Positions 13,568 to 39,818 of a stretch of 49,552 nt of DNA are shown here, in pieces. Under the pieces are notes generated by a model. It worked only from the letters and a program-made list of their open reading frames with translations. It had not been told where the DNA came from and did no database searches. Numbering within the stretch: position 1 is the stretch's first letter; each line of letters starts with the position of its first letter. This DNA is from an uncultured Clostridia bacterium (lineage in GTDB: Bacteria > Bacillota > Peptococcia > Peptococcales > Peptococcaceae), in assembly GCA_944391285.1 (NCBI GenBank), contig CALXSY010000012.1, positions 1 through 49,552 on the forward strand. Direction: 5' to 3'. A program made the position numbers and the translations under genes.

Positions 13568-15853
13568 TTATTTCTTGTCTTGGCAATTGCAATTATTATT
13601 TTTTTTGCCGGATTTCTGACAGGAGCAATTGCTGCTGCCGCAGCTGCAAGTACCATTTCTGCGGATATGGCGAATTACCAAGAAAATGGCTGCCAGCAGG
13701 ATAATGATGATCAGCCAGTCAATCAAATGCAGCTCAAAGTTAAAGATTAAACGTCCGAGATTGTAGACCAAAAGGGCAACAGTATAAGCCACAGCTACCT
13801 GAATTAATCCCATGCGGACAGCTCGCCAAGTAGAACCCATTTCCCTTCTGGCGGCGGCAAAGGTTGCGATGCAGGGAACATAAAGCAAAGTGAATACTAA
13901 AAAGGCATAGGCGCTTAAAGGAGTAAACATTGAGTTTAAGCTGAGTATTAGCTCGCTGTCGGCGGAAGAACCCAATAAAACGGTTAAAGTGCTGACAACT
14001 GCTTCCTTGGCAGTAAGACCGGTGATTAAAGCCGTAGCTACTCGCCAGTCAGCAAAGCCTAACGGGGCAAACAGCGGAGCGATTAAAGCACCTAAGGAAG
14101 CCAGCATGCTGTCTTTGGCTTCGACCACATTGAGCCCCCAATCAAAGGTTTGCATAAACCAAATGATGATGGTTGCCAAAAAAATGACAGTAAATGCCTT
14201 TTTGACAAATTCCTTAGCTTTTTCCCACATATGGCGGATAACACTCATCAATCCGGGCATTCTATAAGCAGGCAGCTCCATGACAAAAGGCATAGCATCG
14301 CCTTCGTAAAGAGTACGGCTTAAAATAAGGCCCATGACAACTGCCATAAAAATACCTAAGATATAAAGAGAAAAGAGAATCAGCGCTTCATGAGTGCCGA
14401 AAAAGGCGGCAATCATCATCGCGTAAATAGGCAATTTGGCACTGCAGGACATAAAAGGTACTAAGCTGATAGTCAACAGCCTGTCTCTTTCGCTGGGAAG
14501 CGTGCGGCTTGCCATAACTGCCGGCACACTGCAGCCAAAACCGATTAATAACGGGGCAAAGGAGCGCCCGGACAGACCGATCTTGCGCAAAAGCTTATCC
14601 ATAACAAAGGCAATACGCGCCATATAGCCGCTGTCTTCCAAAAGCGAGAGGAAGAAAAACAAAACGACGATAATCGGTAAAAACGATAAAACTGAGCCCA
14701 CACCGGCAATGACGGCGTTGATTAAAAGTTCGTAAAGCAGAGGACTGATGCCTAAGCCCAAGAGCCATTGCCCCAGTTGGTAACTGCCATAATCGATTGC
14801 CTGCCCCAATAAATCCTGCAAAGGACCGCCGATGACTTCAAAAGTCAGCCAGAAAACGGTCAGCATAATGCCCAAAAAGATAGGAATACTCCAGACTTGA
14901 TGGGTTAAATAGCGGTCGATTTTTTCTGAACGCAGCTGTTCTTTGGTGATTTGCTTTTTAGTCAGACACTGAGCGCAGACTTTTTCAATATAATTATAGC
15001 GCATATCGGCTAAAGCCGCTAAGGAATCTAAGCCGATGGCTTCTTCCATATTGTCCACGATGTGGTTGATAATATGAATATCGCCTTCGTCCAAGCCCAA
15101 AACTTGCGCTACCTGCGTTTCTCTTTCTACTAATTTGGTAGCGGCAAAACGCACCGGAATTTTTCGGTCGGTGGTGTGATCCTCGATAATATGGGCAATA
15201 GCATGAATCGCCCGGTGAATCTCCCCGCTGCAAAAGTCAAATTTAATTTGGGAAAGGTATTTTTCCTTTTCTTTGCAAATACGCAGTGCCATAAGGGCTA
15301 ACTCGGAAATACCTTCATTTTTAGCAGCGGAAATAGGCACGACCGGCACGCCCAAAGCTGAAGATAAGGCTTCAATATCGATAGAATTGCCGCTGGCTCT
15401 TACTTCGTCCATCATATTTAAAGCTAAGACCATAGGAATATTTAATTCCATCAGCTGCAAAGTCAAATATAAATTGCGCTCTAAGTTTGTCGCATCTAAA
15501 ATATTGATGATTACATCGGGGCGGTCTTTGATAACAAAATCCCTGGTGACAATTTCCTCAGCCGTGTAAGGAGAAAGAGAATAAATACCGGGCAAATCCA
15601 CCAATACCGCCGGCTGCTTTTGATTTTGGTGTTTTCTTTGATCAAAAGGTTTTTTTCTGCCGTGATGATGTCTGCCGATTTGATAGTCATGATGAGCAGC
15701 TATATGCAATAGTTCCGGCTTAATATAGCCTTCCTTGCGCTCAACAGTGACCCCGGGAAAATTGCCTACGTGCTGATTAGAGCCGGTGAGGGCATTAAAA
15801 AGGGTAGTTTTGCCGCAGTTTTGATTGCCGACTAAGCCTAATAAATAACTCAT
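13568..15853 (-). CDS. feoB: Ferrous iron transporter FeoB with His-rich insertion and CxC tail
   Basis: The 761-residue protein moves Fe2+ across the inner membrane. The N-terminal G domain shows G1 GNQNCGKT (9-16), G2 T36, G3 DLPG (86-89), G4 NMMD (146-149) and G5-like SAAKNEG. Between G2 and G3, residues 50-75 carry seven histidines (HH and HHH clusters), an insertion absent from the second FeoB here. The membrane part shows the gate motifs GFGCSVPA and SCSAKLPIY. The C-terminal tail has three C-x-C motifs in TCSCGSSNCSCQ and NCNCQ. Its start overlaps feoA by 4 bases (ATGA). Confidence 0.95.
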   Translation of the reverse strand: MSYLLGLVGNQNCGKTTLFNALTGSNQHVGNFPGVTVERKEGYIKPELLHIAAHHDYQIGRHHHGRKKPFDQRKHQNQKQPAVLVDLPGIYSLSPYTAEEIVTRDFVIKDRPDVIINILDATNLERNLYLTLQLMELNIPMVLALNMMDEVRASGNSIDIEALSSALGVPVVPISAAKNEGISELALMALRICKEKEKYLSQIKFDFCSGEIHRAIHAIAHIIEDHTTDRKIPVRFAATKLVERETQVAQVLGLDEGDIHIINHIVDNMEEAIGLDSLAALADMRYNYIEKVCAQCLTKKQITKEQLRSEKIDRYLTHQVWSIPIFLGIMLTVFWLTFEVIGGPLQDLLGQAIDYGSYQLGQWLLGLGISPLLYELLINAVIAGVGSVLSFLPIIVVLFFFLSLLEDSGYMARIAFVMDKLLRKIGLSGRSFAPLLIGFGCSVPAVMASRTLPSERDRLLTISLVPFMSCSAKLPIYAMMIAAFFGTHEALILFSLYILGIFMAVVMGLILSRTLYEGDAMPFVMELPAYRMPGLMSVIRHMWEKAKEFVKKAFTVIFLATIIIWFMQTFDWGLNVVEAKDSMLASLGALIAPLFAPLGFADWRVATALITGLTAKEAVVSTLTVLLGSSADSELILSLNSMFTPLSAYAFLVFTLLYVPCIATFAAARREMGSTWRAVRMGLIQVAVAYTVALLVYNLGRLIFNFELHLIDWLIIIILLAAIFLVIRHIRRNGTCSCGSSNCSCQKSGKKNNNCNCQDKK

Positions 15854-16083
15854 ACTTCGCTCACCTTCTGCACAGTCAACTTAGCGGCTTCTTCTTTTCT
15901 GATAGTTATCACGTATCCTCTTAAGGAAACTTCTATAGGATCGCCCATAGGAGCAACTTTGCGAACCTTGATTTTGGTATGGGGAGTAAAGCCCATATCC
16001 AAAAGGCGACGGCGGAGTACGCCTTCACCGCCGACAATTAAAAGCTCACATTCTTCGCCGGGGTTTATTTGGTCTAAAGTCAT
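15850..16083 (-). CDS. feoA: FeoA, SH3-like accessory protein of ferrous iron transport
   Basis: The 77-residue protein has the FeoA SH3-like fold pattern: LRRRLLDMGFTPHTKIKV then APMGDPIEVSLRGYVITIRKEEA. It associates with the cytoplasmic side of FeoB. I use the ATG at 16083, which has GGGAGGT 7-8 bases before it; a GTG three codons earlier overlaps that binding site. It is the first gene of the feoAB1 operon. Confidence 0.93.
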   Translation of the reverse strand: MTLDQINPGEECELLIVGGEGVLRRRLLDMGFTPHTKIKVRKVAPMGDPIEVSLRGYVITIRKEEAAKLTVQKVSEV

Positions 16084-16133
16084 ATTATGCACCTCCCAAG
16101 CCAGTGCTAATAAAAGTTATAGATGGTTTACTA

Positions 16134-16173
16134 TATAATAGATAATTATAGTCCTTTTTCAAAGTTCTGTCAA
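16134..16173 (-). promoter_or_regulatory. Consensus promoter of feoAB1 with overlapping iron-regulator-like operator
   Basis: On the minus strand TTGACA (16168-16173) and TATAAT (16145-16150), 17 bp apart, match the sigma-A consensus fully. An inverted repeat TATAATAGATAATTATA (16134-16150, 6-bp arms) covers the -10 box. Such AT-rich palindromes over the promoter are typical of Fur or DtxR-type operators; which one is not determinable here. Confidence 0.7.
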
Positions 16174-16275
16174 TCAAAAAAAGAAGATGGAAAAAATTTT
16201 TGTGAGCCAGAGAGCTATATAATAAAAATTAATAGAAAACAAAAGCGAATCTTTGCCAACTTTTAAAAAAAAGTG

Positions 16276-16304
16276 TTGACAAGCCGGAGCAGAGTGTATA
16301 TAAT
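16276..16304 (+). promoter_or_regulatory. Consensus promoter of the tRNA operon
   Basis: TTGACA (16276-16281), 17 bp, TATAAT (16299-16304), 43 bases before the first tRNA. Confidence 0.85.
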
Positions 16305-16346
16305 TATAAAAGTGTTGCGCAGCCTATTGACTGCAGGATTACAAAT

Positions 16347-16419
16347 GCGCTATTAGCTCAGTAGGCAGAGCACCTGACTTTTAATCAGGGTGTCCCGCGT
16401 TCGAGTCGCGGATAGCGCA
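16347..16419 (+). tRNA. tRNA-Lys (anticodon TTT)
   Basis: Acceptor stem GCGCTAT/ATAGCGC, anticodon loop CTTTTAA in stem CTGA/TCAG, T arm GCGTTCGAGTCGC. First gene of the tRNA operon. Confidence 0.96.
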
Positions 16420-16426
16420 GTAGTTT

Positions 16427-16499
<73 letters not shown>

Positions 16500-16503
16500 T
16501 TTT

Positions 16504-16577
16504 GGCATGTTGGAGAAGTGGCTTAACTCACCAGCCTTTCACGCTGGCATTCAGGGGTTCGAATCCCCTACATGTCA
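16504..16577 (+). tRNA. tRNA-Glu (anticodon TTC)
   Basis: Acceptor stem GGCATGT/ACATGTC, anticodon stem-loop CCAGC-CTTTCAC-GCTGG giving TTC, T arm GGGGTTCGAATCCCC. Confidence 0.94.
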
Positions 16578-16606
16578 TAGACAAATGTCTAATCAAAAGA
16601 AATTAT

Positions 16607-16680
16607 GGCGAAGTAGTTCAGTTGGTTAGAATGCCAGCCTGTCACGCTGGAGGTCGAGGGTTCGAGCCCCTTCTTCGTCG
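16607..16680 (+). tRNA. tRNA-Asp (anticodon GTC)
   Basis: Acceptor stem GGCGAAG/CTTCGTC, anticodon stem-loop CCAGC-CTGTCAC-GCTGG giving GTC, T arm GGGTTCGAGCCCC. Confidence 0.95.
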
Positions 16681-16708
16681 TAGAGTTGGGCTTAAGCCTA
16701 ATTTTTTT

Positions 16709-16781
<73 letters not shown>

Positions 16782-16790
16782 TGAATTAAA

Positions 16791-16847
16791 GATAGCAGAG
16801 AAAAGATAAGAGCAAAGGCTTTTGTTTTTCCTCTGCTATCTTTTTTT
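16791..16847 (+). terminator. Terminator of the tRNA operon
   Basis: GATAGCAGAG (16791-16800) pairs with CTCTGCTATC (16831-16840), followed by seven T. The loop is long and partly self-paired. Confidence 0.85.
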
Positions 16848-16915
16848 GTATGTGCACCAATGGCACCTTTAAGGAATAACATATTATTAAGTCTACAATA
16901 ATGGGGGCTTAGGAT

Positions 16916-17164
16916 ATGGAGTATACTTTAAAAGATTTGCCGGCGGGCTCTTGGAGCTATGTAAAACGGCTTGATATAAACGGTAAGATGAGGCGCAGGC
17001 TATTGGATCTGGGCTTAGTTAAAGGCAATCGGGTCAGCTGCATGGGTGCAAGTCCGCTGGGCGGCTTGAGAGCGTATCAGATTTGCGGAGCTGTGGTGGC
17101 TATTCGTGATGAGGATGCTGCCTTGGTACTGATCGACCGGCCGAGGGGGTGGGGCGATGAATAA
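16916..17164 (+). CDS. feoA: FeoA (second copy)
   Basis: The 82-residue SH3-like protein has the FeoA pattern KMRRRLLDLGLVKGNRVSC, then GASPLGGLRAYQICGAVVAIRDEDA. It overlaps feoB2 by 8 bases, so the two are translationally linked. It differs clearly from the first FeoA in sequence, so the two operons are not a recent duplication. An AT-rich inverted repeat (AATAA-CATA-TTATT, 16875-16888) lies upstream. I found no strong promoter, so read-through from the tRNA operon cannot be excluded. Confidence 0.92.
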   Translation: MEYTLKDLPAGSWSYVKRLDINGKMRRRLLDLGLVKGNRVSCMGASPLGGLRAYQICGAVVAIRDEDAALVLIDRPRGWGDE

Positions 17165-19244
17165 GGAAAACGGCGACTTGATGATGCGCACGGTGGCTTT
17201 GGCGGGCAATCCCAATGTCGGCAAAAGCACTATTTTCAATGCCCTCACCGGTTTAAAGCAGCATACCGGCAATTGGAGCGGCAAAACGGTTAGTTATGCC
17301 AAAGGCTTGTGCCAGTATGAGGGGCACACTTATAATGTAGTGGATATCCCGGGAGCGTACTCTCTTTTGGCTCATTCCAAGGAGGAAGAAGTGGCAAGGG
17401 ATTATTTGTGTTTCGGCGGGGCTGACGGGGTAGTGGTGGTTTGCGACGGAACTTGTTTGGAGCGCAATTTAAATCTGCTTTTGCAGATTTTGGAGCTGAC
17501 GGACAAAGTGGTTGTCTGCGTCAATCTCTTAGATGAAGCAGCCAAAAAAGGCATTAAGATTAATCTGCCTTTATTGGAGGAAAAACTGGGCGTGCCGGTA
17601 GTAGGGACAGTGGCTCACCATAAAGAGGAATTAGGCAGTATTTTAAAGCGTTTGGAAGAAATATTTGCCGCCGGAGAGAAAAGGGAAGCAGTCTATATAA
17701 ATTATCCCGACTATATAGAGGAAGAAATCGGACGGCTGACAAATATTCTGCCGCAGGAAATCGGCGACAAGGCTTATAAAAGATGGCTGGCGCTCAGACT
17801 TCTGGAGGGCGACCAAGGATTTAAAGAGACCCTGCTTGCTCAAAATTCCAAGGCAGAAGAGATTGAAAAAGAAGCAGAAGAAAGCCGCAAACGCCTGCAA
17901 GAGCGGGGAATTGCCAAGGAAACGCTGGCAGATGAGATTGTGACGGCTATTTTAAGGAAAGCCCAGCGAATAGCCGAAGAAGTTATTTATTATGAAAATG
18001 AGGATTGCCACCAAAAGGATCGCCGCATCGATCGGATTTTGACCGGCAAAATCAGCGGGTATATCTGTATGGCGCTTTTTTTGGTAGCGATCTTTTGGCT
18101 GACTATTGTGGGTGCTAATTATCCTTCGGAGCTTTTGGGAATATTTTTTGACCGAGGGGAAATTTTTCTGGCGGACTTATTTGTACAATTAAGGCTGCCG
18201 GAGGCTTTAAGCGCTCTTCTTTTAGAAGGAGTTTGGCGGACTGTAGGCTGGGTGGTAGCGGTTATGCTGCCGCCGATGGCAATATTTTTCCCGCTCTTCA
18301 CGCTTTTGGAAGATGTGGGCTATCTGCCGAGAATCGCTTACAATCTGGATAAACCATTCAAATGCTGCAAGGCTTGCGGCAAGCAGGCGCTGACCATGTG
18401 CATGGGTTTAGGATGCAATGCGGTGGGAGTAATGGGCTGCCGTATCATTGATTCGCCGCGGGAAAGACTGATGGCGATTTTGACCAATTCGCTGATGCCT
18501 TGCAACGGCAGGCTGTCGGCGTTGATTATGCTCTTTTCTCTGCTGGCTTTGGCAAAGGGGGGCGGTGAGCTTGGAGGTATCGGAATTGCATTGGGGATGA
18601 GTGCGCTTTTAGTGATGAGCCTTTTCGCAACTTTGCTGATTAACAAACTGCTTTCCCAAACTATTCTAAAAGGAGTGCCTTCGTCTTTCGTTTTGGAATT
18701 GCCGTCTTACCGCAAGCCGCAGATTGCCCAGGTTTTGGTACGCTCGGTTTTTGAGCGGACGCTGTTGGTTTTAAAGCGGGCGGTAGTGGTAGCGGCACCG
18801 GTAGGAGCGCTTTTGTGGGTGTTAGCCAATATATCGGCTGGTGAGATGAGCCTTTTAAGTTATCTGGCGGCTAAATTAGACGGCATAGGCTCTTTGATGG
18901 GCTTGGACGGAGTGATTTTGCTGGCTTTTATTTTAGGCTTGCCTGCCAATGAAATCGTGGTGCCTATCATCATTATGGGATATCTGGCAGAAAAGGGTTT
19001 GGTGGAAACCAGCAGCCTAAGTCAGCTGCAAGAGCTTTTTTGGGCTAACGGCTGGAATGAGGTAACTGTGATTTGCCTGTTGGTTTTTATGCTTTTTCAT
19101 TGGCCTTGTGCCACAACTATCTGGACTATCAGAAAAGAAAGCGGAAGTTTGAAATGGAGTTTGCTGGCAATTTTGCTGCCGACTTTTTTGGGAATGAGCT
19201 TGTGTATCGTGATAAATTTGGCGGCAAAAGTTTTCGGATTTTAA
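17157..19244 (+). CDS. feoB: Ferrous iron transporter FeoB (second copy)
   Basis: A 695-residue FeoB. G1 is GNPNVGKS (17-24), G2 T44, G3 DIPG (63-66), G4 NLLD (123-126). The first gate region is Cys-rich (KCCKACGKQALTMCMGLGCN), and GCRIIDSPRERL is typical of a clostridial FeoB subfamily. It lacks the His-rich insertion and the CxC tail of the first copy and is 66 residues shorter. The first ATG follows GGGGGTGGGGCG; ATGs nine and ten codons later are alternatives. Two FeoB types in one genome suggest different metal affinities or conditions; that is inference. Confidence 0.94.
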   Translation: MNKENGDLMMRTVALAGNPNVGKSTIFNALTGLKQHTGNWSGKTVSYAKGLCQYEGHTYNVVDIPGAYSLLAHSKEEEVARDYLCFGGADGVVVVCDGTCLERNLNLLLQILELTDKVVVCVNLLDEAAKKGIKINLPLLEEKLGVPVVGTVAHHKEELGSILKRLEEIFAAGEKREAVYINYPDYIEEEIGRLTNILPQEIGDKAYKRWLALRLLEGDQGFKETLLAQNSKAEEIEKEAEESRKRLQERGIAKETLADEIVTAILRKAQRIAEEVIYYENEDCHQKDRRIDRILTGKISGYICMALFLVAIFWLTIVGANYPSELLGIFFDRGEIFLADLFVQLRLPEALSALLLEGVWRTVGWVVAVMLPPMAIFFPLFTLLEDVGYLPRIAYNLDKPFKCCKACGKQALTMCMGLGCNAVGVMGCRIIDSPRERLMAILTNSLMPCNGRLSALIMLFSLLALAKGGGELGGIGIALGMSALLVMSLFATLLINKLLSQTILKGVPSSFVLELPSYRKPQIAQVLVRSVFERTLLVLKRAVVVAAPVGALLWVLANISAGEMSLLSYLAAKLDGIGSLMGLDGVILLAFILGLPANEIVVPIIIMGYLAEKGLVETSSLSQLQELFWANGWNEVTVICLLVFMLFHWPCATTIWTIRKESGSLKWSLLAILLPTFLGMSLCIVINLAAKVFGF

Positions 19245-39671: not shown

Positions 39672-39679
39672 AAAAAGTG

Positions 39680-39797
39680 ATCTTCAGGGCAGGGTGTAAA
39701 TCCCGACCGGCGGTGTGTCTGATGATAAGTCCGCGAGCCTTAGGGCTGAATCGGTGCGATTCCGATACCGACAGTATAGTCTGGATGAAAGAAGAGC
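39680..39797 (+). ncRNA. FMN riboswitch (RFN element)
   Basis: The conserved blocks are all present in order: ATCTTCAGGGCAGGGTG, AAATCCCGACCGGCGGTG, AGTCCGCGAGC, a variable stem with GAATCGGTGCGATTC, then ACCGACAGTATAGTCTGGAT and the closing GAAGAG that pairs with CTTC to form P1. This aptamer binds FMN and usually shuts off riboflavin synthesis or uptake genes. Here the next genes are ecfA1-ecfA2-ecfT. A terminator at 39819-39845 gives the expected OFF device by premature termination. Confidence 0.96.
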
Positions 39798-39818
39798 GGA
39801 TTAGTGCGATATTTTTAG

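What the first reader, a model, noticed from the sequence alone, without database searches (positions are those of the whole stretch)
15627..15706. His-rich insertion inside the G domain of FeoB
Residues about 50-75 of the first FeoB carry seven histidines, in HH and HHH clusters, between the G2 and G3 motifs where FeoB normally has a short turn. The second FeoB in the window has no such insert. It may bind Fe, Zn or Ni and tie nucleotide turnover to metal level.
Basis: partly seen in the sequence, partly recalled or inferred. Interest (0 to 1): 0.5.

Follow-up and report, generated by a model that had tools for sequence, protein, structure and literature searches.

The report
Iron transporter with histidine-rich insert
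One iron-uptake protein in this bacterium carries an extra histidine-rich loop that the relatives examined here lack; it may bind metal, but that is unproven, and a more widely shared cysteine-histidine motif found nearby may matter more.

Summary
FeoB1 (13568-15853, minus strand) has a 32-residue insert (residues 46-77) with seven histidines between strands 2 and 3 of its G domain. The G1-G3 distance is 77 residues here and 44-47 in the 109 other FeoBs read (28, 81). The most similar one (64% identical) has no insert. Pattern scans for 14-33 extra residues found only this gene. AlphaFold2 keeps the NFeoB fold and predicts a short helix with H50, H54 and H55, then low confidence through HHH. 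Four residues separate the insert from ExxE, a published putative Fe(II) site. Metal binding is plausible, not shown. An unexpected, better conserved feature: FeoBs of this subfamily share C-x(3-16)-H-x3-H-x3-H at the start of the helical regulatory domain (78 of 83, against 0 of 27 others). If FeoB nucleotide turnover responds to metal, that motif is the stronger candidate.

The parts
13568..15853 (-). feoB1, 761 aa FeoB of the GNQNxGKT...GNFPGVT ('F') type
   Evidence: ORF; Pfam FeoB_N, Gate, FeoB_C, FeoB_Cyto; TIGR00437 611 bits, cut-off 315.65
15623..15718 (-). the insert, residues 46-77, 32 aa, 7 His, net charge +3 (K+R minus D+E)
   Evidence: alignment gap in four F-type relatives of the class; composition
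15680..15718 (-). predicted helix 46-58 of the insert, with H50, H54, H55
   Evidence: AlphaFold2 on full length and on the cytosolic part (helix 46-59); mean pLDDT of residues 51-60 is 68 and 71
15731..15742 (-). ExxE motif E38-R-K-E41, inside VERKEG; residues 42-45 separate it from the insert
   Evidence: sequence; VERKEG is the peptide studied as a putative NFeoB Fe(II) site
15176..15232 (-). subfamily motif C208-x4-H213-x3-H217-x3-H221-x4-H226 at the start of the helical (GDI) domain
   Evidence: C with three H in 78 of 83 other F-type FeoBs, 0 of 27 FeoBs of other types; lies in the predicted helix 210-230 except C208
13583..13648 (-). Cys-rich C-terminal tail, 6 Cys, residues 736-757
   Evidence: weak similarity to PF12669 FeoB_associated, 12 bits against cut-off 27
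15850..16092 (-). feoA1, overlapping feoB1 by 4 bases
   Evidence: Pfam FeoA 69.6 bits
16145..16173 (-). consensus promoter TTGACA-17-TATAAT upstream of feoA1-feoB1
   Evidence: consensus match only
17157..19244 (+). feoB2, 695 aa, without the insert (comparison)

Best explanation
FeoB1 has the ordinary domain content of an Fe(II) transporter, plus a lineage-restricted 32-residue His-rich and basic insert at the tip of the beta2-beta3 hairpin of its G domain. Most likely the insert is a solvent-exposed, partly helical, otherwise flexible arm whose histidines (H50 and H54 as an i/i+4 pair, H55, and the HHH run) bind divalent transition metal weakly. It would add ligands near the ExxE motif and hold or hand over cytosolic Fe(II) at the G domain, rather than being part of the GTPase catalytic machinery. 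Shown here: the insert, its restriction among the FeoBs examined, and a preserved predicted fold. Inferred: exposure, metal binding, which metal, and any effect on transport or GTP turnover.
For: Insert real and absent in the 109 other FeoBs read and in the pattern scans. His enrichment beyond chance. Two predictions keep strands beta2 and beta3 (40-43 or 38-43, and 82-86) and place a helix at 46-58/59; the model aligns to NFeoB crystal structures with target TM up to 0.91. Residues 42-45 alone separate it from ExxE; AxxA mutants gave moderate Fe(II) deficiency in E. coli, as reported in PMC11920956 (passages). His-rich stretches occur in metallochaperone GTPases of the HypB/UreG/COG0523 group (PMC2770081, passages). 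Cytosolic Cys/His features recur in FeoB: the C-H-H-H motif, a His-rich stretch in L029 and L033, Cys-rich tails.
Against: One genome only: no second member to show conserved histidines. Mean pLDDT is 57-68 for residues 61-80, so no defined site is predicted. Third-position GC of the insert is lower than in the rest of the gene (8 of 32 against 362 of 729, Fisher P 0.007), less clearly so once amino acids are allowed for (P 0.06): a hint of recent origin, which would fit a neutral insert. The isolated ExxE peptide binds Fe(II) only weakly (Kd 2.2 mM), and the AxxA mutants were still cleaved, so other residues may bind iron (PMC11920956). E-x-x-E itself is not universal: 39 of 63 aligned FeoBs have it, 19 have D at one or both places, 5 have neither form.
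Confidence: 0.5

Rival explanations
1. A tolerated, functionally neutral insert: a stretch of DNA or an expanded loop that landed in frame at a permissive hairpin tip; its histidines are accidental, helped by CAT repeats.
For: Known from one genome; hairpin tip, fold predicted unchanged; lower third-position GC than the gene; low confidence after residue 60.
Against: Seven His in 32 residues is unlikely from its own base composition (31 of 100,000 shuffles); the gene is intact. In 109 other FeoBs read the G1-G3 distance varies only between 44 and 47, so the site does not seem to accept inserts readily.
Confidence: 0.33
2. A protein- or membrane-contact arm: the basic, His-containing arm docks FeoA, the helical domain or phospholipid head groups and so tunes the nucleotide cycle without binding metal.
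For: Net charge +3 by K, R, D and E; FeoA and NFeoB interact depending on nucleotide in B. fragilis, and the G2-G3 segment responds to GDP (PMC8980893, passages); feoA1 overlaps feoB1.
Against: In that study the FeoA contact is posited at the PxxP motif, and the G2-G3 deprotection was seen with GDP, when FeoA was not engaged. F-type FeoBs without the insert are common.
Confidence: 0.13
3. Assembly or sequencing error, or a mobile repeat of the kind that inserts in frame.
For: Single genome; read support could not be checked.
Against: In frame with no stop; no second copy of the peptide in the genome, and the best other DNA match is 42 bases at 81%, E 0.004, in what reads as gyrB; no match in phage records at E 0.1; no unusual hairpin (z -0.7).
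Confidence: 0.04

Closest known systems
FeoB ferrous iron transporter (TIGR00437; Pfam FeoB_N, FeoB_Cyto, Gate, FeoB_C)
   Same: All four Pfam domains, G motifs, usual length, feoA next to it
   Different: 32-residue His-rich insert between G2 and G3, not in the 109 other FeoBs read here
F-type FeoBs (GNQNxGKT, GNFPGVT), by record title from Clostridia, Coriobacteria, Bacteroidales and others, e.g. L010, L048, L049
   Same: 52-64% identity over the F-type rows of the full-length alignment; shared C-H-H-H motif in the helical domain
   Different: G1-G3 distance 44-47 instead of 77
G3E metallochaperone GTPases with His stretches (HypB, UreG, COG0523)
   Same: A GTPase with a His-rich stretch (PMC2770081, passages)
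   Different: No G3E family among the Pfam or NCBIfam matches; their stretches are described at N- or C-terminal regions, here it is inside the G domain; FeoB is a membrane transporter
His-rich loop of CDF metal transporters
   Same: His-rich loop on a metal transporter (PMC7762939, passage)
   Different: There between transmembrane helices 4 and 5, here in a G domain; a different family

Membership tests
FeoB | FeoB_N G domain, helical FeoB_Cyto, Gate (two stretches) and FeoB_C | tested here: met
   all four above curated cut-offs
FeoB | equivalog model TIGR00437 above cut-off | tested here: met
   611 bits against 315.65
FeoB | NFeoB fold | tested here: met
   predicted model matches NFeoB crystal structures, target TM up to 0.91
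FeoB | Fe(II) transport | not testable with these tools
   needs experiment
G3E His-stretch metallochaperones (HypB/UreG/COG0523) | G3E-family GTPase domain | tested here: not met
   no such family among matches at E 0.001
G3E His-stretch metallochaperones (HypB/UreG/COG0523) | His-rich stretch | tested here: met
   7 His in 32 residues; bears on how it may work, not on membership
FeoB_associated (PF12669) as a fused C-terminal tail | match above gathering score | tested here: inconclusive
   12 bits against 27 for FeoB1; relatives L011 25.9, L012 26.8, L013 35 bits
Dispersed in-frame repeat element | several copies in the genome | tested here: not met

The most novel reading that the evidence does not exclude
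F-type FeoBs are metal-sensing G proteins: the conserved C-x(3-16)-H-x3-H-x3-H motif at the start of their GDI domain binds cytosolic Fe(II) or Zn(II) and sets GDP release, giving feedback inside the transporter. In this lineage the His-rich insert adds a second, G-domain metal contact near ExxE.
Probability: 0.25. Interest if true: 0.72.

Novelty: new variant of a known kind. Interest (0 to 1): 0.42.

Why it matters
How FeoB couples nucleotide turnover to iron transport is unsettled. A cytosolic metal-responsive element in the G or GDI domain would be a direct feedback device. The insert offers a natural with/without comparison, and the subfamily C-H-H-H motif gives a conserved target that point mutants could test in a laboratory strain.

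Tried and rejected
the first whole-collection scan, with patterns taken from one protein, found no relative. One search, the second scan the rules allow, used an alignment of residues 1-45, which stops before the insert and so cannot select for or against it.

(FeoB_N family, 149 genomes of the phylum) cannot test for large inserts: the printed list was cut off at about 7e-56, above the split pieces of the window's own gene (1.5e-44 and 3.6e-18). The unsplit matches printed span at most 474 bases for about 154 positions (read by eye).

One search (W-type pattern, 398 genomes) gave four matches; translation shows that none is a FeoB. Sensitivity of the fixed parts of the patterns, measured on fetched loci: 48 of 80 F-type loci fit the AAT form (398 genomes) and 32 of 80 the AAC form (only 199 genomes); 23 of 25 loci L015-L039 fit the W form. 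FeoBs with other motif variants, inserts outside 14-33 residues, and other phyla are not covered. One search found FeoB matches in 739 plasmid records, all under 60% identity; five were listed and none was examined for an insert.

Origin of the insert: nothing beyond short weak matches in the genome, none in phage records. A Fur-type box pattern was not found upstream of feoA1. The distance between the insert, ExxE and the C-H-H-H motif could not be measured because no model coordinates are returned.

Literature on a His-rich insert in a FeoB G domain, or on the C-H-H-H motif, was sought. Nothing in the listings describes either, but the listings are partial (for example 20 of 36 papers, 10 of 121, 12 of 56,958), and no paper was read whole: I saw passages of PMC4847171, PMC11920956, PMC2770081, PMC9164220, PMC10647171, PMC7762939 and PMC8980893. 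The original Fe(II)-cleavage paper (PMC2946837) is not held, so its content is taken from PMC11920956.

Full report
What was checked. It encodes residues 50-76, with histidines at 50, 54, 55, 62, 63, 64 and 75. Pfam and NCBIfam place the protein in FeoB without doubt. By score the genome holds three FeoBs: this one, FeoB2 in the window, and one on another contig; the ten further FeoB_N matches score 60 bits or less and I take them for other GTPases. In one search this gene's own match is split in two pieces at the insert.

Size and limits of the insert. Against four F-type relatives of the class (65, 60, 58 and 57% identical) the alignment opens one gap of 32 columns opposite residues 46-77. 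The G1-to-G3 distance is 77 residues here. It is 44-46 in 28 FeoBs of relatives (one further locus, L014, lacks the N-terminus) and 44-47 in 81 FeoBs of 80 named genome loci; the other two FeoBs of this genome have 45 and 46. The most similar of 62 aligned FeoBs (L010 from G003, same family; 64%) has no insert. No genome of the same genus was listed in the searches by relatedness, so the age of the insert within the genus is unknown.

Wider search. Patterns for a FeoB with 14-33 extra residues at this place found only the window's own gene among 398 genomes of the phylum (F-type with AAT codon), nothing among 199 (AAC codon) and four false matches among 398 (W-type; shown not to be FeoB). The fixed parts of the patterns fit 48 and 32 of 80 F-type loci and 23 of 25 loci of relatives. 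The other side of this is that the insert is a singleton and its histidines cannot be tested for conservation.

Chance. Seven or more His in 32 residues has P = 8e-7 at the window's own His frequency; about 0.4 such windows would be expected in an assumed 550,000 residues. From the insert's own base composition it happens in 31 of 100,000 shuffles. His runs inflate both. His-rich windows as such are not unique among FeoBs: 3 of 62 others have at least 7 His in 32 residues, L029 with 10, L033 with 8 and L076 with 7, starting at residues 162-167; that of L076 overlaps the subfamily motif described below. In the short hairpin of the other 62 FeoBs, 32 have no His, 24 have one and 6 have two.

Structure. 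Two AlphaFold2 runs, full length with 63 sequences (mean pLDDT 87.8) and the cytosolic 308 residues with 72 sequences (92.7), agree: beta2 ends at 43, a helix spans 46-58 or 46-59, residues 61-80 have block means of 57-68, and beta3 is 82-86. The second run adds a short helix at 72-76. The full-length model aligns to NFeoB crystal structures with target TM up to 0.91. The insert is thus an arm on the hairpin tip and the G domain is predicted intact. H50 and H54 are spaced i/i+4 on the predicted helix, a spacing that can chelate metal (recalled, from no call).

Why metal is plausible. Residues 42-45 separate the insert from E38-R-K-E41. VERKEG is the exact peptide studied as the ExxE putative Fe(II) site of E. 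coli FeoB. For that site Fe-driven cleavage nearby and moderate iron deficiency of AxxA mutants are reported; but the mutants were still cleaved to some extent and the isolated peptide binds Fe(II) only at millimolar Kd (PMC11920956, abstract and passages). The motif is E-x-x-E in 39 of 63 aligned FeoBs, with D at one or both places in 19. In B. fragilis NFeoAB the G2-G3 segment becomes deprotected with GDP (PMC8980893, passages). His stretches are common in metallochaperone GTPases (PMC2770081, passages). None of this shows that this insert binds metal.

What turned up besides. Comparing the cytosolic parts showed that F-type FeoBs share a motif at the start of the helical (GDI) domain: C, 3-16 residues, H-x3-H-x3-H, usually with a further H five places on (62 of the 79 that could be lined up). 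Among 83 F-type FeoBs (FeoB1 itself not counted) C with three H is in 78, C with two H in 4 more, and neither in one (L084). Among 27 FeoBs of other types (the window's FeoB2 was not in the set) the C-H-H-H pattern is in none; five have an H-x3-H of another kind. In FeoB1 it is C208, H213, H217, H221 and H226. The 80 named F-type loci were chosen by residues 1-45 only, so the motif did not select itself. In the best-matching solved chain, S. thermophilus NFeoB, the aligned stretch shows no such Cys and His, and a search with the region alone found nothing better than E 0.08. H213, H217 and H221 would fall on one face of the predicted helix 210-230. This motif is conserved where the insert is not, and it lies in the domain named for control of GDP release; it is the better candidate for a link between metal and nucleotide. 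Its function is inference.

Rivals. A neutral insert is not much less likely than a functional one: one genome, a hairpin tip, low third-position GC (8 of 32 against 362 of 729, Fisher P 0.007; P 0.06 after allowing for amino acids). A docking arm for FeoA or lipid is possible but less supported. An assembly error or mobile repeat is unlikely.

Verdict. Observation confirmed; interpretation partly supported. It is a new variant of a known transporter, of moderate interest as a singleton, raised somewhat by the subfamily motif that came with it.

Noticed in passing
15176-15232 (-), and F-type FeoBs in L010-L013 and L048-L127: Subfamily motif C-x(3-16)-H-x3-H-x3-H at the start of the FeoB helical (GDI) domain: 78 of 83 F-type, 0 of 27 FeoBs of other types.
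   Followed up: partly
L029:1342-3399 and L033:1342-3393: W-type FeoBs from two genomes of the same family (G008, G012) carry a His-rich stretch after the G domain (10 and 8 His in 32 residues).
   Followed up: no
13583-13648 (-): Cys-rich C-terminal tail with 6 Cys, weakly like PF12669 (12 bits); relatives L011-L013 have similar tails, L013 above the cut-off, while the most similar FeoB, L010, has none.
   Followed up: partly
16131-16173 (-): Consensus sigma-70 promoter TTGACA-17-TATAAT for feoA1-feoB1 overlapped by an imperfect palindrome, CTATAATTATCTATTATATAG, with a second related copy (81%) at 16215-16235: a possible regulator site.
   Followed up: no
13568-19244: Two feoA-feoB pairs point away from each other around an array of five tRNA genes (16347-16781).
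   Followed up: no
39676-39800 (+): FMN riboswitch.
   Followed up: no
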